Positions 47,912-57,179 of a stretch of 64,000 nt of DNA are shown in pieces. The notes beneath the pieces were generated by a model. The model had not been told where the DNA came from, made no database searches, and worked only from the letters and a program-made list of their open reading frames with translations. Position numbers and translations under genes: made by a program. The DNA comes from an uncultured Bacteroidales bacterium (GTDB lineage Bacteria; Bacteroidota; Bacteroidia; Bacteroidales; F082), in NCBI GenBank assembly GCA_900318085.1, contig ONJF01000017.1, positions 1-64,000 on the forward strand. Reading direction: 5' to 3'. Numbering within the stretch: the first letter of the stretch is position 1; each line of letters starts with the position of its first letter.

Positions 47912-50061
47912 CATTAGACCCCAGATCCGACACCCTTTGGAAGACCTACTTAGTGTATTTCCTCGTTCTCCTCTTCGGCATCGCCATCATCGTGAAGATC
48001 ATCCTGGTGCAGACCAAAGACAGCAAGGAGCTGCAGCAACTGGCCGAGAAACAGGAATACCGCATACAGACGCTCGAAGCCTCGCGGGGCAACATCTTCT
48101 CGTCCGACGGCCAGCTGATGGCCACCTCCATCCCACTCTACGACGTCTTCTTCGACTACAAAGCCGTCGACTCGGCATTCTTGGCCGAAAACATCGACTC
48201 GCTCTGCCGACAAATGGCACAGCTGCTACCCAAGCGCAACCCCGACGAATGGAAGGCCTTCTTCGCCCAAGGCATGGCCAAAGGCAACCGCCACTACAAG
48301 ATAGCGCTCAACATCACCCAACCCGAACTGCGCCAGATGCAGAGCTTCGTCATCTTCAACCGCGGCATCTACAAGGGTGGCATCATCGTGGAGAAGAAAA
48401 TCCGCCGCGAACGCCCCTACAAGGAACTCGCCAGCCTCATGCTCGGCATGGCCAACGAAGAAAAGGGGTACTATTTCGGCATCGAAGGTGCCTACAACGA
48501 CTACCTCAAAGGCATCAATGGGCAACAACTGGTGAGAAGAATCCATAACGGCGGCTATGTGCCCATCGACTCGGAGGATAACACCGAGGCGAGGAACGGT
48601 GACGATGTGGTCACCACCTTCGACGTCAAGCTGCAAGACATCGTGGAGAGTGCCCTCAACCACACGCTCACCGAAAACAAGGCCGAGCAAGGCTGCGCCA
48701 TCCTGATGGACGTGGAGACAGGCTATGTGAAGGCCTTGGCCAACCTGCGTCTCAACCATGAGACGGGTGCCTACGAAGAGTCGTACAATGTGGCCCTCAC
48801 CGAACGCTACGAGCCCGGATCGGTGTTCAAGATTATCTCGATGGTCGTCCTCCTCAACCAGAAACGAGACACCAAACTCACCGACCTGGTGAACATCGGC
48901 ACTGGACCCATCAAGTTCTCGAACCGCGTGATGAAAGACGACCACAGCTTTGCCAAAAACGGCATCTGCACCGTGCAAGAGGTCATCGAGCAGTCGTCAA
49001 ACAAAGGCACCGCCGTGCTCATCACTCGCGCCTTTGCGGCACATCCCGAACAATATGTCAACGGGCTCTATGCACTTGGGCTAAACAAAAAAATCGGCAC
49101 TGGCATCACCGGCGAGTCGCAACCAGTCATCAAAGACCCGAAAGACAAGGACAAACCCGGCGGTTGGTCAAAGGTGACCCTGCCTTGGATGTCGATCGGC
49201 TACGAGGTCAACGTGACGCCCCTACAACTCGTCATGATCTACAACGCCATCGCCAATGGCGGGCGCTTGATGAAGCCACAATTCGTCAGCGAGGTGCGTC
49301 GCGGCAACCAAATCGTCGAGCGCTTCGACCCCATCGTACTCAACGAGCACATCGCCCCGCCCGATGCCATCGAGAAACTGCAGACCATGCTGGAAGGCGT
49401 GGCCATCCGCGGCACCGCCAAGCGTCAGTTCCAAGGCTGCGTCGTCAATGTGGCCGGCAAGACGGGTACCGCTCAATACTACGACCGTGTGCAAGGCTAT
49501 GCCTACCACGAACCCGGCATTGGCCGTAAGCTCTACAACACCACCTTCGTGGGCTACTTCCCTGCCGAGAAGCCGCGCTACAGCTGCATCGTCATGGTAA
49601 GCCGCGCCCGTGGCCGCTTCTGGGCCGCCGGCGGCGTGTCGGCCCCTGGCTTCAGGGAGATTGCCGAAAAGGTGTACGCCATGCGTATCGGCACGCAAGA
49701 CGAAGACTCCATCAAAGTCACGACACGACAGCCGCAAGGTCCTGTCATCGTGCGCCACGATAAGGAGACCAATTACCTCAAAGGCATCAACAAGTCGTAC
49801 ACCGACTTGGCCATCAACGGCGATTGGGTCACCGTGGAGCACACCGACGACGGCGAGACACGCATCCGCGAGGCCCATCTGGCCGACAATGTCGTGCCCA
49901 ATGTGGTCGGCATGGACATCACCGACGCCGTCTACCTTCTCGAAAACATGGGGCTCAAGGCCGACTTCAGCGGACAGGGCACCATCACAGAGCAGTCGCT
50001 GCATGCTGGCGACACCCTCAAAGCCAACAGTGTCATTCACTTAAAACTGGAAAAGAAATGA
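47908..50061 (+). CDS. ftsI: Division transpeptidase FtsI (class B penicillin-binding protein)
   Basis: A 717-residue peptidoglycan transpeptidase. One N-terminal membrane helix (about 10-32), a dimerisation domain beginning [11 protein letters not shown], then the transpeptidase domain: SxxK active site S305-VFK308 in EPGSVFK, SSN (SxN) and KTGTAQ. The C-terminal 60 residues form a PASTA domain ([21 protein letters not shown]), as in many Bacteroidota and Gram-positive homologues. Cross-links septal peptidoglycan with FtsW. Four-base overlap with murE. Confidence 0.95.
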
Positions 50062-51515
50062 AGCTCAAAGAAATATTGGTCAACTGTAACCTCTTGGAAA
50101 TTGTCGGCGACAAAGACCTCGACATCCTTGACATCGCCTTCGACTCGCGCAAAGTGCAATCCGGCACGCTGTTCTTCGCCGTGAAGGGCACGCAAGCCGA
50201 TGGCCACGACTACATCGACAAGGCCATCGAGCAAGGGGCGTCAGCCATCGTATGCGAGAAAATGCCACGTAAGAAATCCGAGCAGGTCACCTATGTAAAA
50301 GTCGACAACTCGGCCTATGTGTTGGGCATGGCCGCCTCCAATTTCTTTGGCAACCCCTCGGAGAAGCTACGTTTGGTGGGCGTGACGGGTACCAACGGCA
50401 AGACCACCATCGCCACCTTATTATATAGGCTCTTCACGGGGGCGGGCTATCACTGCGGACTGCTCTCCACCATCGAGAACATCATCGGGCGTGATGTCGT
50501 CGCCTCAACACACACCACCCCCGACCCCATTGAGCTCAACACGCTCTTGCAGCGCATGGTGGACAAAGGCTGTGAATACGCCTTCATGGAGGTGAGCTCG
50601 CACAGCGTGGCCCAAGAACGCATCGCGGGACTGTATTTCGCAGGCGGCATCTTCACCAACCTCACCCACGACCACCTCGACTACCACAAGACCATGGCCA
50701 ACTACCGCAACGCCAAGAAGAAATTCTTTGACGGGCTGCCCCAGTCGGCCTTCGCCCTCACCAACCTCGACGACAAAAACGGCGCCTTCATGTTGCAAAA
50801 TACCAAAGCCAAGAAACTGAGCTACGCCCTGAAACACGACGCCGACTTCAAAGGCATCGTCATGGAGAGCCACTTCGACGGCATGCTGCTCAAGGTGAAT
50901 GGCACAGAGGTGTTCACACAACTGGTGGGTGGATTCAATGCCAGCAACCTGTTGGCCATCTATGGCGCAGCACTGTCGTTGGGCTTCAACAAGGACGAGT
51001 TGCTGGTCGAAATCAGCAAGCTGCATGGCGCCAACGGCCGCTTCGACATGGTCCACTCGGCACAGGGCATCGTCGGCATCGTCGACTACGCCCACACCCC
51101 CGACGCCTTGGAGAACGTGCTTGTCACCATCAATGAGGTACGTCATCACAAGGAGACGCTCATCACCATCGTAGGCTGCGGTGGAAATCGCGACACTACC
51201 AAACGTCCCGAGATGGCTGCCGTGGCCGTCAAACTGAGCGACAAGGTCATCCTTACCAGCGACAACCCGCGCAACGAAGACCCCGACGAGATCATCCGCC
51301 AGATGAAGGCGGGCATCGCCGAAGAAGACAAACACAAGGTGCTGAGCATCACCAACCGCGGCGAGGCCATCCGTACCGCCGTGGCCCTGGCCAAACCTGG
51401 CGACATCATCCTGCTGGCAGGCAAAGGCCATGAGAACTATCAGGAAATCAACGGAGTAAAGAACCATTTCGACGACAAGGAAGCCTTGTCGCAAGCTTTC
51501 AAGGAGGCTGAATAA
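50058..51515 (+). CDS. murE: UDP-MurNAc-L-Ala-D-Glu:meso-diaminopimelate ligase MurE
   Basis: A 485-residue Mur ligase from the ATG at 50058, which overlaps the ftsI stop as ATGA; in-frame codons further upstream lie inside ftsI. P-loop GTNGKTT near 112-118, HTTPDPIEL substrate loop, carbamylated-lysine region YHKTMANYR, and the SDNPR motif that selects meso-diaminopimelate. Full length and motif-complete, in contrast to murD. Adds the third residue of the stem peptide. One-base overlap with mraY. Confidence 0.95.
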
Positions 51516-52792
51516 TGCTGTACTATCTCTTCAACTACCTCGATCAACACGACTTCCCCGGTGCGGGCGTGTTCAACTACGTCACCTTCCGCGCTGCGGT
51601 GGCCATCATCATCGCCCTCATCGTCGCAGTGTGGTTCGGTAACTGGTTCATCAAGATGCTGAAACGCAAGCAAATCGTCGAGACCCAACGCGACGCGTCC
51701 ATCGATCCCTACAACACCAAAAAAGTGGGCGTGCCCACCATGGGTGGCGTCATCATCATCATGGCCATCCTCATCCCCGTGCTGCTCGTTTGCAAACTGC
51801 ATAGCGTCTACACCATCCTGATGGTCATCACCACCCTCATCCTCGGCATCCTGGGCTTCGCCGACGACTACACCAAGACCTTCAAGCACAAGAAAGACGG
51901 TCTGAAGCCTGCGGTTAAGTTGGGCGGACAAATCCTGTTGGGCCTCATCGTCGGACTCACGCTACGTCTCAGCCCTGCCGTGCAAATCAACGAAAAAGTG
52001 GAGGTGAAGATCGAGAACAACACCGAGGTAGTGCAGAAGAGCCCCGACGTGAAGTCGACACGTACCACCATCCCCTTCGTGAAAAGCCACAACCTCAACT
52101 ATGCCGACCTGTTCAAATGGGCGGGCGAGAAGTGGATGTACAACCTGGCATGGGTGTTCCTCGTGCTGCTCACCGTCTTCGTCGTGGCCGCCGTCAGCAA
52201 CGGCTCCAACCTCAACGACGGCATGGACGGCATGGCATCGGGCAACTCCGCCATCATCGGCTTGACCTTGCTGCTGCTGGCCTATATCTCCAGTAACGCG
52301 GTCACAGCGAGCCACCTGAACTTGATGTACATCCCAGGTAGCGAAGAACTGGTGGTCTTCATGGCCGCCTTCGTCGGTGCCCTCATCGGTTTCCTGTGGT
52401 TCAACTCCTTCCCTGCCCAAATCTTCATGGGCGACACCGGAAGCCTGACCATCGGCGGCATCATTGCCGTATCAGCCATCATCATGCACAAGGAGTTGCT
52501 CCTTCCCTTGCTCTGTGGTGTGTTCCTTTTCGAGATCCTCTCCGACCTCGACGTGAAACGTTTCGTCAAGACGGGCAAGAAACACCGTATTTGGAAGAAA
52601 GGGCCCTTGCATGATCACTTCAGAACGAGCTATAGCGACTTCAAGAAAGCGTGGCCCAACTCTACCGTCACCTTCAAGGGGCACGGCGAGGGACACAACG
52701 CCGTCCACCACGAAGTGAAAATCACACTTCGCTTCTGGATTGTCACCATTCTCCTAGCCGCATTTACACTCATCACCTTCAAAATAAGATAA
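51515..52792 (+). CDS. mraY: Phospho-MurNAc-pentapeptide transferase MraY
   Basis: A 425-residue membrane enzyme with about ten helices that transfers phospho-MurNAc-pentapeptide to undecaprenyl phosphate, giving lipid I. Motifs: PTMGGVIII, LGFADDYTK (the aspartate-rich motif), NGSNLNDGMDG, FMGDTGSL and the KGPLHDHF loop near the end. The longer soluble insertion at about 155-185 is usual in Bacteroidota. Ends before a low-complexity tract that replaces the expected 5' part of murD. Confidence 0.95.
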   Translation: MLYYLFNYLDQHDFPGAGVFNYVTFRAAVAIIIALIVAVWFGNWFIKMLKRKQIVETQRDASIDPYNTKKVGVPTMGGVIIIMAILIPVLLVCKLHSVYTILMVITTLILGILGFADDYTKTFKHKKDGLKPAVKLGGQILLGLIVGLTLRLSPAVQINEKVEVKIENNTEVVQKSPDVKSTRTTIPFVKSHNLNYADLFKWAGEKWMYNLAWVFLVLLTVFVVAAVSNGSNLNDGMDGMASGNSAIIGLTLLLLAYISSNAVTASHLNLMYIPGSEELVVFMAAFVGALIGFLWFNSFPAQIFMGDTGSLTIGGIIAVSAIIMHKELLLPLLCGVFLFEILSDLDVKRFVKTGKKHRIWKKGPLHDHFRTSYSDFKKAWPNSTVTFKGHGEGHNAVHHEVKITLRFWIVTILLAAFTLITFKIR

Positions 52793-52796
52793 ACTC

Positions 52797-52830
52797 CAAC
52801 AACTGACAACTGAACAACTGAACAACTGAT
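52797..52830. repeat. CAACTGA micro-repeat at the murD deletion junction
   Basis: Four imperfect units of seven to nine bases (CAACTGA, CAACTGAA) fill most of the 51-base gap between mraY and the murD remnant. Confidence 0.8.
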
Positions 52831-52843
52831 AACCACAATCCCC

Positions 52844-53404
52844 ATGATTTACATTGAAGAACTAACCAATACGAGACAAAGACAACCCCAATCCATGGTA
52901 GCCAGCATATCGTCACAGATATTGCAGATAAGGAAAGAGAACATCAAACAGAGCCTGAGCGACATCGGCACCATCTGCCACCGTCAGGACTACATCGCCA
53001 CCGTCGACGGTGTGATGTATTACGACGACTCACGCGCCGAGAACGTCAATGCCACTTGGTTCACTTTCGAGAATATAGTACGGCCCGTCATCTGGATCGC
53101 AGGCGGCGACGAGTGCGAGGCCGACATGAAAGACCTGCGCCGCATGGCGAAGAAAAAAGTGAAAGCGATGGTTTGCATAGGCAAAAGCCAGGCCAAGATG
53201 AAGAAGACCTTCCAAAGTGAAGTCAAAGACATCTTCGAAGCCGACAGCCTCGAAGAGGCCGTCAGGACTGCTTCGCTTTTGGCCAAGGACAACGACATCG
53301 TACTGTTCTCGCCTGCCGCAAAAACGACGGGAGAGAGCTTCGCTGAGCGCGGCGAGCTATTCACCGAAACTGTAAAACAACTGGAAAATGAGCTTCATCA
53401 ATAA
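52844..53404 (+). CDS. murD: MurD remnant: C-terminal domain only
   Basis: A 186-residue protein in the usual place of murD, which normally encodes about 445 residues. Residues from about 18 (SMVASISSQILQIRKEN) match the end of the central domain, then the C-terminal domain follows: CHRQDYIATVDGV, YYDDSRAENVNATW (versus DSKATN), VIWIAGGDE and DIVLFSPAA. The UDP-MurNAc-binding N-terminal domain and the ATP P-loop domain are absent. The usual SPACASFDLF-type D-Glu motif is replaced by SPAAKTTGES. The lysine of DSKATN is R here. It should not make UDP-MurNAc-L-Ala-D-Glu alone. The frame is intact and overlaps ftsW by 17 bases. Confidence 0.85.
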   Translation: MIYIEELTNTRQRQPQSMVASISSQILQIRKENIKQSLSDIGTICHRQDYIATVDGVMYYDDSRAENVNATWFTFENIVRPVIWIAGGDECEADMKDLRRMAKKKVKAMVCIGKSQAKMKKTFQSEVKDIFEADSLEEAVRTASLLAKDNDIVLFSPAAKTTGESFAERGELFTETVKQLENELHQ

Positions 53405-54686
53405 AATATTGAAAGGCGACAAGGTCATTTGGATCATCGCGCTGTTGTTGGCCGTCATCTCATTGATTGTGGTCTACAGCGCGACAAGTGCTTTGGCCCT
53501 CAACAAATATGAAGGCGACACCGGCAAGGCGCTGATGAAGCACCTCACCATGCTGCTCTTCGGCTTCCTGATGATGTTTGGAGCCTCCAGAATCAACTAC
53601 AAACACTACGCAAAAATCGCCTGGGTACTGCTAATACCCACCTTGGCACTGCTGCTCTACACCCTCGTCTTTGGCCGCAACATCAACGACGCCAGCCGTT
53701 CCATCAACGTGGGTGGATTCTCGTTCCAACCCAGCGAGATGGCCAAGATCATCCTCATCACCTACCTGGCACGACAACTCATCATGATGGAAGGCAAGGT
53801 ATACAAATACAAGGAGTTCCTTCTCAAGATAGCGGCACCCATCCTGTTTACCGTGGCCCTCATCTTCACCGAGAACCTGTCGACAGCCCTCATCCTGATC
53901 ATGGTATGCATGGTGTTGCTCTTCATCGGGCGCGTCAAGATGTTGCACATCCTCTCGCTCGTGGGCATCTGCGTGGTGGGCATGGGTCTCTATCTCGCCA
54001 TCGATGCTGCCAAGACAAGCATCGACAACAAGCATAGCGTCAAGGCTCATGAACAAGCCGTGGCGCTAGGTACAAAGTCGGCAGATGAATACAAGGCCAA
54101 GCAAAACCGCATCCAAACTTGGGCGAACCGTCTGAAATCGATGGGAGAGGACAAAGGCGAGGTCAACCGCTTCGATGACAGCCACATGCAACGCACCTAT
54201 GCCGACATCGCCGTGGCTTCGGGCTCGGTCTTCGGCAAAGGTCCCGGCAAGAGCGAGCAACGCAACTTCCTGCCCCACCCCTACTCCGACTTCATCTATG
54301 CCATCATCATCGAGGAATATGGCATCGTGGGCGGTATCCTCGTGCTGCTGCTCTATGTCATCCTCTTCACCCGAGTCATCCGCATCGTAAGCAAACGCAC
54401 GCTTACCTTCGGTGCCCTGATGGCCTTTGGACTCGGATTCCTCATCATCCTCCAAGCCATGATCAACATGGGCGTCAGCATCGGACTGCTGCCCGTCACA
54501 GGTCAGCCGCTGCCCTTCGTCAGCATGGGCGGCACCTCGTTGATGGCCACAGGCATCATCATCGGCATGATCCTCAGCGTCACCCGTAGCATGGAAGACG
54601 AGAGCATGAACAAAGAACAAGAAATAGAAGCCATCGTTGAACCAATCGATACAAGCCATGAAACAGAACCTGAAAGTCGTGATTAG
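53388..54686 (+). CDS. ftsW: Septal peptidoglycan polymerase FtsW (SEDS family)
   Basis: A 432-residue membrane protein with about ten helices. SEDS motifs: INVGGFSFQPSEMAKI, the large periplasmic loop with its conserved stretch, LPHPYSDFIYAIIIEEYG, and LPVTGQPLPFVSMGGTSL. The enzyme polymerises lipid II together with FtsI. The C-terminal 30 residues are acidic. Starts inside the murD remnant (17-base overlap) and overlaps murG by 29 bases. Confidence 0.95.
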   Translation: MSFINKILKGDKVIWIIALLLAVISLIVVYSATSALALNKYEGDTGKALMKHLTMLLFGFLMMFGASRINYKHYAKIAWVLLIPTLALLLYTLVFGRNINDASRSINVGGFSFQPSEMAKIILITYLARQLIMMEGKVYKYKEFLLKIAAPILFTVALIFTENLSTALILIMVCMVLLFIGRVKMLHILSLVGICVVGMGLYLAIDAAKTSIDNKHSVKAHEQAVALGTKSADEYKAKQNRIQTWANRLKSMGEDKGEVNRFDDSHMQRTYADIAVASGSVFGKGPGKSEQRNFLPHPYSDFIYAIIIEEYGIVGGILVLLLYVILFTRVIRIVSKRTLTFGALMAFGLGFLIILQAMINMGVSIGLLPVTGQPLPFVSMGGTSLMATGIIIGMILSVTRSMEDESMNKEQEIEAIVEPIDTSHETEPESRD

Positions 54687-55755
54687 TGGCGGCGGCACCG
54701 GCGGCCACATCTTCCCCGCCATCGCCATCGCCGATGCCTTGAAGAGGCGTTTCCCAGAGGCCGACATCCTGTTTATCGGCGCCAAGGGACGTATGGAGAT
54801 GGAACGCGTGCCCAAGGCGGGTTATCCCATCGAGGGCCTTTGGATCAGTGGCATGACCAAAGACATCAAGTCGCTCTTGCTGCCTTTGAAGCTCACGAGT
54901 AGCATCAACCATGCCATCGCCATCTTGAAGCGTTTCAAACCCGATGTGGTGATTGGTGTAGGCGGCTTTGCCAGCGGTCCTACCTTGATGGGGGCTAACT
55001 ATCTCGGCATCCCTACCGTCATCCAGGAGCAGAACTCCTACCCCGGCAAGACCAACCGCAACGTGGGCAAGAAGGCCAAGGCCATCTGCGTGGCCTATGA
55101 CCACCTCGACCAATGGTTCCCTGCCGAGAAGATACACTTCACTGGCAACCCCTTGAGAGCCAACATCACCCTCAACGGCACCCGCGAGGAAGCCGCCGCG
55201 TTCTTCCACCTCGACCCGACCCAACCCGTCGCCTTGTTGGTAGGTGGTAGTCAAGGTGCCTTGGGCATCAACAAAGGCATCAGCGCCCAACTCAAAGCCT
55301 TCTGCGACAGCGACCTGCAACTCATCTGGCAGACCGGCAAGACCTATATCGACCAAGCCAACAAAGAGGTGAAGGCCTTAGGCCTCGAAGACCGTGTGAA
55401 ACCCACCGTCTTCATCGAGCGCATGGACCTGGCCTATGGCCTCGCCGACGTGGTCATCTCACGCGCTGGCGCCATGTCGATCTCGGAGCTGGCCTTGGTG
55501 CAACGCCCCGTCATCTTCGTGCCGCTGCCCACCGCCGCCGAAGACCACCAAACCAAGAACGCCCAGCAACTCGTCGACGCAGAGGCAGCCCTCATGGTGC
55601 GCAACGCTGACGCCGAACAGGAACTCGTCCCTGCCCTGATGCGTCTCGCCTCCGACAAGGCCTTACAGACGAAACTGAGCGAAAATATCGGCAAGTTTGC
55701 CCGTCCAAACGCCGCCGACGATATCGTAGACCAAATCATAAAAGCCATAAGCTAA
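54658..55755 (+). CDS. murG: UDP-GlcNAc:lipid I transferase MurG
   Basis: A 365-residue GT28 enzyme from ATG 54658; an ATG 21 bases earlier would only add residues before the first strand. GGGTGGHIFPAIAIA at the N-terminus, GVGGFASGP, EQNSYPGKTNR and the C-terminal ISRAGAMSISEL loop that binds the UDP-sugar. Works at the cytoplasmic face of the inner membrane and forms lipid II. Separated from murC by 83 bases that carry a repeat. Confidence 0.95.
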   Translation: MKQNLKVVISGGGTGGHIFPAIAIADALKRRFPEADILFIGAKGRMEMERVPKAGYPIEGLWISGMTKDIKSLLLPLKLTSSINHAIAILKRFKPDVVIGVGGFASGPTLMGANYLGIPTVIQEQNSYPGKTNRNVGKKAKAICVAYDHLDQWFPAEKIHFTGNPLRANITLNGTREEAAAFFHLDPTQPVALLVGGSQGALGINKGISAQLKAFCDSDLQLIWQTGKTYIDQANKEVKALGLEDRVKPTVFIERMDLAYGLADVVISRAGAMSISELALVQRPVIFVPLPTAAEDHQTKNAQQLVDAEAALMVRNADAEQELVPALMRLASDKALQTKLSENIGKFARPNAADDIVDQIIKAIS

Positions 55756-55838: not shown

Positions 55839-57179
55839 ATGACAAACGGAGAAGGACATACCATCTATATGCTAGGCATCGGCGGCATCGGCATGAGCGC
55901 CCTGGCCCGCTACTACCACAGCCAAGGCCACACTGTGGTCGGCTACGATCGTACCCCTTCCCCACTGACACGACAACTCGAAGACGAGGGCATGGCCATC
56001 CATTATGAAGACAGACCCGACCTGTTGCCCGCCCATATCGACTTCGTCGTATATACACCAGCAGTTCCGAAAGACCTGAAGGAGTTCGAAGTCCTTCGGC
56101 AAAACAATATAAAGATTATGAAACGCGCCGCGGCCTTGGGCAAGGTCACGGAAGGGCACTTCACCATCGCGGTGGCTGGCACGCACGGTAAGACCACTAC
56201 CACCGCTATGGTGGCCCACATCCTCAACGAATGCGGGAGGAGCACCACCGCCTTCATCGGCGGCATCGCCAACAACTTCAACAGCAACCTGCTGCTTAGC
56301 AAGGAGAAAGATTTCGTCATCGTGGTGGAAGCCGACGAGTTCGACCATTCGTTCCTCCAACTCCACCCCAACATCAGCATCATCAACTCCATCGATGCCG
56401 ATCACCTCGACATCTATGGCGACCGCCAACATCTGGTGCAAAGCTTCAACGACTTCGCCGACCTCACCGAAAGCAAAGTCATCGTCAAGGAAGACTTGGC
56501 CATCACAACCGACCGAGGCATCCGCTTCGGCTTTGGTGAAGGCAGCGACTATCGCGCTGAAATCATCAAATCGGAACAAGGCGTGACGGATTTCATCATC
56601 CATGATGAAGGAGAGATGACCGAAGTCAAGCTACCCATGGCAGGCAAGCACAACGTGATGAACGCCACTGCCGCCTTCATCGCTGCCCGACAGATTGGAC
56701 TCGACACCAAAGCCATCGCACAAGCGCTGTCCACCTTCAAAGGCGTAAAGCGCCGCTTCGACGTCCGCGTCAAAAACGCAAGGCACTGCTACATTGACGA
56801 CTACGCCCACCATCCCGAAGAGATCCGTTCGTGCCTCACCGCCATCAAGAGTTCGTTCCCAGAAAAGAAGCTTACCCTGGTCTTCCAGCCCCACCTCTTC
56901 AGTCGCACCCGCGACTTCATGGACGGCTTCGCCGAGGTGCTCGCCCTGGCCGACACGCTCATCCTTTTGGACATCTACCCTGCCCGCGAGTTGCCTATCG
57001 AAGGCATCACCTCACAAGCCCTCTTGGACAGAGTACAACTTGCCGACAAACGCCTCTGCTCCAAGTCGGAACTCGTCAACCTGATTGAAAGCGAGAAGCC
57101 CGAGCTTCTGGTCACCATGGGCGCAGGTGACATCGACCGTTTTGTTGAACCCTTGGAAAATATGATCAAGACATGGTAA
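55839..57179 (+). CDS. murC: UDP-N-acetylmuramate:L-alanine ligase MurC
   Basis: A 446-residue Mur ligase that adds L-alanine to UDP-MurNAc. Begins with the Rossmann loop GIGGIGMSALA, P-loop GTHGKTTT near 110-117, EADEFDHSF, INSIDADHLD and the C-terminal DDYAHHPEEI motif. All three domains are present and of normal length. Overlaps ftsQ by seven bases. A complete MurC beside a MurD remnant means L-Ala product is made while the D-Glu step must be supplied elsewhere. Confidence 0.95.
   Translation: MTNGEGHTIYMLGIGGIGMSALARYYHSQGHTVVGYDRTPSPLTRQLEDEGMAIHYEDRPDLLPAHIDFVVYTPAVPKDLKEFEVLRQNNIKIMKRAAALGKVTEGHFTIAVAGTHGKTTTTAMVAHILNECGRSTTAFIGGIANNFNSNLLLSKEKDFVIVVEADEFDHSFLQLHPNISIINSIDADHLDIYGDRQHLVQSFNDFADLTESKVIVKEDLAITTDRGIRFGFGEGSDYRAEIIKSEQGVTDFIIHDEGEMTEVKLPMAGKHNVMNATAAFIAARQIGLDTKAIAQALSTFKGVKRRFDVRVKNARHCYIDDYAHHPEEIRSCLTAIKSSFPEKKLTLVFQPHLFSRTRDFMDGFAEVLALADTLILLDIYPARELPIEGITSQALLDRVQLADKRLCSKSELVNLIESEKPELLVTMGAGDIDRFVEPLENMIKTW

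What the first reader, a model, noticed from the sequence alone, without database searches (positions are those of the whole stretch)
52844..53404. murD reduced to a C-terminal fragment within an otherwise complete dcw operon
The Mur ligase MurD is essential and normally about 445 residues. Here the frame begins near the end of the central domain, so the substrate-binding and ATP-binding domains are gone. The remaining domain also has changed key positions: DSRAEN instead of DSKATN, and SPAAKTTGES where SPACASFD-LF is expected. Yet the frame is open, protein-like to the end and overlaps ftsW by 17 bases. Either D-glutamate addition is done by another gene, the stem peptide differs, or the fragment has taken a structural or regulatory job in the Mur complex.
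Basis: partly seen in the sequence, partly recalled or inferred. Interest (0 to 1): 0.85.

Follow-up and report, generated by a model that had tools for sequence, protein, structure and literature searches.

The report
Stand-alone C-terminal domain of MurD
In many Bacteroidales the cell-wall enzyme MurD appears to have been replaced by a different enzyme pair, and in some of them the old murD gene has repeatedly been cut down, from about the same internal start, to its last third, which is kept and, in the genus of this window, is under selection.

Summary
It is the C-terminal domain (CTD) of MurD, between mraY and ftsW, in 22 of 22 genus genomes read and 51 of 51 Bacteroidales contigs of a second scan, 38 of them new; dN/dS is 0.13 against the nearest relative. 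D-Glu addition has moved: MurI is absent, and elsewhere a full-length MurD with MurD2-type (L-Glu) residues adjoins a MurL epimerase homologue. In 295 Bacteroidales genomes MurL occurs in 95, strong MurI in 187, never both. CTD-only murD occurs in 33 of 80 MurL genomes and 0 of 79 MurI genomes with a match. At least five truncations look independent, from about the same start codon. That codon is a conserved Met inside full-length murD with start-like signals; the codon bias among them is missing at homologous murC and murE sites. So the CTD may be an old internal-start product with a non-catalytic job. That job, and MurD2/MurL activity here, are inferred.

The parts
52844..53404 (+). CTD-only murD: about the last 35 residues of the central domain plus the C-terminal domain of MurD, 186 aa; its start ATG lies within a codon of a conserved internal Met of full-length Bacteroidales murD
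51515..52792 (+). mraY, upstream (51-base gap)
53388..54686 (+). ftsW, overlaps the end of the CTD ORF by 17 bases
50058..51515 (+). murE (ATG at 50058; the listed open frame runs from a TTG further upstream)
54637..55755 (+). murG
55839..57179 (+). murC
52793..52843 (+). spacer, rich in A, before the start codon of the CTD ORF
   Evidence: pooled start context of CTD-only genes

Best explanation
The ORF is a functional, non-catalytic protein made of the C-terminal domain of the original MurD. In this genus the D-Glu step has been taken over by a MurD2-like ligase that adds L-Glu and a MurL-like epimerase that inverts it, both encoded elsewhere; glutamate racemase is gone. That freed the N-terminal and ATP-binding domains of the dcw-encoded MurD, which were lost, while the C-terminal domain was kept because it does something else. 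The same cut happened several times in Bacteroidales that carry MurL and leaves about the same start codon. Most likely job (inferred): a small adaptor in the Mur/Fts assembly at the membrane, keeping a contact that full-length MurD makes with MurG, MraY, FtsW or the other Mur ligases. Shown by sequence: domain content, conservation, selection (in this genus), loss of catalytic residues, MurL/MurI exclusion, MurD2 residues, repeated truncation. Inferred: MurD2 and MurL activity here, and the adaptor role.
For: Own genome: no TIGR00067 match; full-length MurD-like gene on C88 (318 bits) directly next to a 452-aa protein matching NCBIfam MurL (267 bits, E 1.6e-79, cut-off 700). All 24 MurD2-type proteins read have E at the D182 position, R at K348 and I at K319; the 12 dcw-type full MurDs in the same alignment have D, K, K. 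The review reports that E197D/R358K turns Xanthomonas MurD2 into a D-Glu ligase and that K319T lets E. coli MurD take L-Glu (PMC8788868). In 295 Bacteroidales genomes: MurL 95, strong MurI 187, both 0, neither 13. MurL and MurD2 lie within 2.5 kb in 66 of 74 genomes compared and share one open frame, by frame length and place, in G019, G021, G098, G123, G187, G318. CTD-only murD in 33 of 80 MurL genomes against 0 of 79 MurI genomes with a match (Fisher about 6e-13 with G123 counted as full, not corrected for kinship). Contrasts full versus CTD-only inside families f6, f34, f48, f70, f89 with local support 0.995-1.0; 16 all-truncated clades on the whole FastTree tree. In f13, f48 and f70 the cut CTD is closest to the full-length MurD of its own family. 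dN/dS of the CTD: 0.135 window versus nearest relative (0.128 without the last 10 codons), median 0.228 over 224 overlapping pairs, beside 0.176 for ftsW and 0.080 for mraY. Fold core kept (D62, W72, W84/I85, V106, G113, A139, P157, F175) while the HN and K348 positions decay. MurG binding of MurD, MurE and MurF of Thermotoga is reported in PMC6420597 (passages).
Against: No interaction or phenotype was tested; the adaptor role is inference. Selection was measured only in this genus. MurL hits score far below the model's equivalog cut-off (0 of 295 over it), so function could differ. 42 of 80 MurL genomes keep a full-length MurD, with P-loop, HN, NDSKATN and the K348 lysine in all 43 such proteins read (G036 included) and only minor changes elsewhere, so MurL does not by itself make MurD dispensable, and their D-Glu source is unclear. 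G096 seems to have lost the CTD altogether, though its genome is 91% complete in about 330 contigs. Among 31 CTD-only proteins outside the genus 20 keep K at 319 and 20 keep T at 321, so some may be recent remnants. G038 has a CTD-only ORF without MurL, and G016 and G023 of the genus have one without a strong MurL match. The CTD identities in f6, f34 and f89 do not point to their own family's full-length MurD. Regain of a full-length gene by transfer, instead of repeated cuts, is not excluded.
Confidence: 0.7

Rival explanations
1. The ORF is a decaying remnant, kept only because it overlaps ftsW and its translation couples into ftsW.
For: 17-base overlap with ftsW; catalytic residues lost; dN/dS higher than mraY and ftsW; some CTD-only copies nearly canonical, as if recent.
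Against: Open frames of 176 or more residues from the start ATG in the 21 genus CTDs and open frames of 180 or more in 51 of 51 contigs; dN/dS 0.10-0.17 in each third of the protein; some CTD-only genes do not overlap ftsW, e.g. L046, L047, L058.
Confidence: 0.15
2. The CTD is kept as a ligand-binding sensor (D-Glu or UDP-MurNAc-dipeptide) that regulates the Mur pathway.
For: Several CTD-only copies keep DSKATN and SPACASFDLF; Lys348, Ala414 and Leu416 lie near D-Glu in E. coli MurD (PMC8788868).
Against: K at the 348 position is lost in 23 of 31 CTD-only proteins outside the genus and 19 of 22 in it; F at the F422 position is kept in 15 of 31 and 1 of 22 (the name F422 is recalled). The window copy lacks K319, T321 and K348.
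Confidence: 0.08
3. The CTD-only protein is an accessory subunit of MurD2 (or MurL).
For: In the two sets compared, CTD-only genes occur only in genomes with MurL.
Against: MurD2-type proteins have their own complete CTD; full-length MurD coexists with MurL in 42 of 80; the CTD stays in the dcw operon, not beside MurD2; G038 has a CTD without MurD2 or MurL.
Confidence: 0.12
4. Binning or assembly error created the fragment.
For: The window genome is fragmented (93 contigs, contamination 3.1).
Against: Same structure in 22 of 22 genus genomes read and 51 of 51 named contigs, 38 of them new.
Confidence: 0.01

Closest known systems
[quoted passage not shown]
   Same: Homologous to its last 165 profile positions; same dcw place between mraY and ftsW; nearest solved structures by sequence profile are MurD CTDs, e.g. 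7sy9.
   Different: No UDP-substrate domain, no ATP-binding P-loop region; K319, T321, K348 and the SPACASFDLF residues changed; it cannot be a ligase alone.
MurD2/MurL alternative pathway (Xanthomonas, Stenotrophomonas, Micromonospora; PMC8788868, PMC5808125)
   Same: The full-length MurD on C88 has the MurD2 specificity residues; adjacent MurL homologue; no MurI.
   Different: The review lists Gamma- and Alphaproteobacteria and rare actinobacteria; PMC5808125 (passages) adds low-similarity orthologues in a fungus, cyanobacteria and an amoeba. Here 95 of 295 sampled Bacteroidales genomes; some appear fused; none reaches the NCBIfam equivalog score.
Internal-start isoforms such as Spa33 (PMC6925163, seen in a search listing with the start of its abstract only)
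   Same: A gene whose C-terminal part may also be made separately from an internal start.
   Different: For murD this is inferred from codon and mRNA signals; in the cut lineages only the C-terminal product is left.

Membership tests
MurD D-Glu ligase | Three domains, full length | tested here: not met
   Only profile positions 276-440 of 441 matched; score below cut-off.
MurD D-Glu ligase | ATP P-loop GSNGKTTT and HN motif | tested here: not met
   The P-loop region is absent; H of HN is kept in 0 of 22 genus CTDs.
MurD D-Glu ligase | K319, T321, K348 of the CTD | tested here: not met
   DSRAEN and GGDECEAD in the window ORF.
MurD2/MurL pathway (own genome) | MurL homologue adjacent to a MurD-like gene | tested here: met
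   NF041275, E 1.6e-79, overlapping the C88 murD-like gene by a few bases.
MurD2/MurL pathway (own genome) | MurL equivalog score over the curated cut-off | tested here: not met
   267 bits against 700; by its name the model is for Xanthomonadales, so MurL is called a homologue here.
MurD2/MurL pathway (own genome) | E and R at the D182 and K348 positions of the ligase | tested here: met
   24 of 24 proteins read, own included.
MurD2/MurL pathway (own genome) | No glutamate racemase | tested here: met
   No TIGR00067 match in the own genome; 0 of 24 in the genus.
[quoted passage not shown]
   Needs purified enzymes.
Pseudogene | Broken frames or neutral dN/dS | tested here: not met
   Open frames in the genus CTDs and in 51 of 51 contigs; dN/dS 0.135 to nearest relative, median 0.228, range 0.037-0.507.
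Internal translation start in full-length murD | Conserved ATG with start-site context | tested here: met
   Met in 43 of 43 MurL and 35 of 38 MurI full-length genes; A-bias of codons is the gene maximum; A at -3 enriched but not at -6.
Internal translation start in full-length murD | Protein product observed | not testable with these tools
   Needs ribosome profiling or N-terminal proteomics.

The most novel reading that the evidence does not exclude
Bacteroidales murD is a two-product gene: a conserved internal start makes a stand-alone C-terminal domain with a function of its own in the cell-wall or division machinery, besides the ligase. Where the MurD2/MurL route made the ligase dispensable, the 5' part was lost, repeatedly, and only the internal product remained. 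The window shows the end state.
Probability: 0.45. Interest if true: 0.88.

Novelty: new variant of a known kind. Interest (0 to 1): 0.77.

Why it matters
If right, about a third of sampled Bacteroidales genomes make the D-Glu of their wall by a route that the papers I found describe only for some Proteobacteria and actinobacteria, and the standard murD model (TIGR01087, above cut-off for the own genome's C88 gene) would name their L-Glu ligase as ordinary MurD. The repeated survival of just the MurD C-terminal domain would point to a second, non-catalytic function of a textbook essential enzyme, which can be tested directly by looking for the internal product and its partners.

Tried and rejected
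Assembly or strain-specific error: rejected. Contamination as source of the full-length gene: unlikely, since a MurD match over the cut-off and a strong MurL match are each in 20 of 24 genus genomes (missing in G002, G003, G016 at 71-77% completeness and in G023 at 97%). Different stem peptide: no evidence seen. A split murD with the N-terminal part elsewhere: no such match in the own genome. Decayed MurD in MurL genomes that keep it full length: expected but not found. D-amino acid transaminase as reason for keeping full-length MurD: an association is there (31 of 42 against 3 of 33; rows assigned by me from the list, test), but of eight proteins scanned out of ten fetched one is an IlvE over its cut-off and the rest are below every cut-off shown, one with a PabC model on top, so it is left as a weak lead. 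Synonymous-codon test: a first run on only 7 MurI genes gave no signal before the Met; with 38 genes the signal is clear after the Met (z 6.3) and weak before it (z 2.7 at -13, 1.3 at -10) and 25 of 38 genes are positive. A at -6 is not enriched at the internal Met. The tree is FastTree with a midpoint root, so 16 clades is a rough count and five is the well-supported number; f13 has support 0.27, f4 and f26 are not clades on it; G035 and G036 were not in it. Fold comparison could not be run. Papers: searches listed nothing that I recognised on a stand-alone MurD CTD, an internal murD start or MurL in Bacteroidota; listings were capped and the library is open-access only.

Full report
What is there. 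The ORF at 52844-53404 (+) encodes 186 residues that match only the last part of the MurD model (positions 276-440 of 441) and Pfam Mur_ligase_C. It stands between mraY and ftsW in an otherwise complete dcw operon and overlaps ftsW by 17 bases. Residues that canonical MurD has in this domain at K319, T321 and K348 are changed (E. coli numbers as in PMC8788868 where given there, otherwise recalled). An AlphaFold2 model gives an alpha/beta domain from about residue 49 on, with a helix at 24-38 before it (mean pLDDT 75.6, pTM 0.67; residues 1-13 and 39-44 below 50). The solved structures matched by sequence profile are all MurD (11 distinct sequences).

It is conserved, not broken. All 22 genomes of the genus whose dcw locus I read have the CTD-only form. 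A scan of named genomes with the window protein gave 54 loci, 51 of them Bacteroidales or Bacteroidia MAG contigs; where a title names a host it is a ruminant (deer, buffalo, yak, goat, sheep) or, once, a horse. All 51 have mraY before and ftsW after, and none, nor the window, matches the canonical MurD profile before position 251. Thirteen of the 51 carry the same CTD as one of the 22, so 38 are new; all 51 CTD sequences differ. One long open frame (L241, 420 residues) only lacks an upstream stop. Two of the 51 (L232, L244) lack a Met within three residues of the usual start. dN/dS is 0.135 against the nearest relative (dS 0.62), 0.10-0.17 along the protein, and unchanged without the ftsW overlap. 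Over 224 pairs, which share sequences, the medians are 0.228 (CTD), 0.176 (ftsW) and 0.080 (mraY).

Who adds glutamate. The own genome has one MurD-like gene over the family cut-off, on another contig (C88, 318 bits). Directly before it, overlapping by a few bases, is a 452-residue protein whose only NCBIfam hit is MurL (267 bits, E 1.6e-79; the model's cut-off is 700). MurI is absent from the own genome and from 24 of 24 genus genomes. MurL is a strong match in 20 of those 24; of the other four, three are 71-77% complete and one (G023) is 97%. The ligase has E where E. coli MurD has D182, R at K348 and I at K319, in 24 of 24 such proteins read, against D, K and K in 12 of 12 dcw-type MurDs. 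The review PMC8788868 (two of three parts of the text read) reports that E197D/R358K turns Xanthomonas MurD2 into a D-Glu ligase and that K319T lets E. coli MurD accept L-Glu; the mapping onto our alignment is mine. In six genomes MurL and MurD2 matches lie side by side in an open frame of the same length (G019, G021, G098, G123, G187, G318), which I read as fusions.

A pattern across the order. In 295 Bacteroidales genomes of at least 90% completeness, MurL is found in 95 (all at 203 bits or more), MurI with E below 1e-22 in 187 (186 over the family cut-off), both in 0, neither in 13. Twenty-two MurL genomes have weak matches of the MurI family (E 4e-21 to 1.5e-5), which I take for other racemases without having tested it. 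MurL and MurD2 are within 2.5 kb in 66 of 74 genomes compared. Of 80 MurL genomes examined for the old dcw MurD (15 of the 95 left out), 42 keep it full length, 33 have only the CTD, one (G123) is cut by a contig end, and four gave no match. Of those four, G072 has the start of a full-length gene running off its contig, G096 has mraY in another setting and seems to have lost it, and in G042 and G143 no mraY over the cut-off was found. Of 80 MurI genomes, picked by hand out of the 187 and mostly one per family, 79 gave a match, all in open frames of 441 residues or more; frame length is the evidence for full length there, except in the 38 MurI genes that were read. Full-length MurDs in MurL genomes keep the P-loop, HN, NDSKATN and the K348 lysine in 43 of 43, with small changes elsewhere in about ten.

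Repeated truncation at about one place. CTD-only genes are in 18 families, eight of which also hold full-length genes. A tree of five dcw proteins (103 rows of 105) gives 16 all-truncated clades, of which the within-family contrasts in f6, f34, f48, f70 and f89 have local support 0.995-1.0. Of the 33 CTD-only genes, 22 have an ATG exactly at the first position of my CTD profile, ten more have one within four codons of it (in G092, G270 and G090 a further ATG lies before), and in G313 the only one listed is 11 codons before (my reading of the table; position 1 is extrapolated where the match starts later). That position is a Met in 43 of 43 full-length genes of MurL genomes and 35 of 38 of MurI genomes, allowing -2 to +1, and exactly so in 41 and 34.

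A possible internal start. F. johnsoniae, of the Bacteroidota, lacks Shine-Dalgarno sequences and favours A at -3, -6, -12 and -13 and low structure at its starts (PMC6847099, passages read). At the internal Met, A is found at -3 in 74% (MurL, n=43) and 66% (MurI, n=35), against 32% at other internal Mets; at -12 in 65% and 71% against 37% and 36%; at -13 in 60% against 19% in MurL genes but 17% against 15% in MurI genes; and -6 is not enriched (26% and 6% against 30%), which does not fit. Synonymous codons around it are biased to A: the strongest windows of the whole gene lie there (z about 10 in MurL genes, 6.3 in MurI genes, against an rms of 2.9 and 1.8 over all windows). Over codons -13 to +9 the bias is positive in 43 of 43 MurL genes and 25 of 38 MurI genes, and in the top 5% of the gene in 24 and 15. 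Real starts of murE, mraY and ftsW show a bias of the same size (ratios 1.34-1.57), murC does not (1.07), and the homologous sites inside murC (n=18) and murE (n=40) show none. The A context and the mRNA openness were not compared with murC or murE. The mRNA around the internal Met is among the less structured parts of the gene (median percentile 0.954 and 0.843). These genes are related, so the z values overstate independence.

What decays and what stays. In CTD-only proteins the H of the HN motif is kept in 0 of 31 outside the genus and 0 of 22 in it, and K348 in 8 of 31 and 3 of 22, while K319 and T321 are each kept in 20 of 31 (2 and 1 of 22), D317 in 31 of 31 and 22 of 22, and W72 in 29 of 31 and 22 of 22. 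W84, I85, V106, G113, A139, P157 and F175 also stay in 94% or more. That looks like loss of catalysis with the fold, and perhaps a partner surface, kept.

Interpretation. I take the window ORF to be a working protein without ligase activity. The literature has MurG binding MurD, MurE and MurF and a proposed Mur complex (PMC6420597, passages); an adaptor in such a complex is the most economical role, but nothing here tests it. The boldest reading the data allow is that the CTD was already a separate product of murD before the cuts.

Noticed in passing
G038 (locus L289), unnamed Bacteroidales genome, 98% complete: No MurI or MurL match and no MurD over the cut-off, yet a 212-residue MurD-CTD-like ORF sits between mraY and ftsW; how it makes the D-Glu step is unknown.
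   Followed up: partly
G019 and G021 (L035, L031), G098, G123, G187, G318: MurL and MurD2 matches share one open frame of 885-996 residues, apparently fusions.
   Followed up: partly
L060 (G015): mraY is missing from its dcw place between murE and the CTD ORF.
   Followed up: no
L050 and L055 (G023, G013): murG is missing between ftsW and murC; in G013 a murG-like gene lies on the contig of MurD2 (L076:9155-10345).
   Followed up: no
MurL genomes with full-length MurD: A small PLP fold-IV aminotransferase is commoner in genomes that keep full-length MurD (31 of 42) than in CTD-only ones (3 of 33), by my reading; subfamily unclear.
   Followed up: partly
G074: MurL-like match with one in-frame TAA and no MurD2 found; CTD-only murD in place.
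   Followed up: no
G023, same genus, 97% complete: CTD-only murD but no MurD over the cut-off, no MurI and only a weak MurL match; may be a gap of the MAG.
   Followed up: partly
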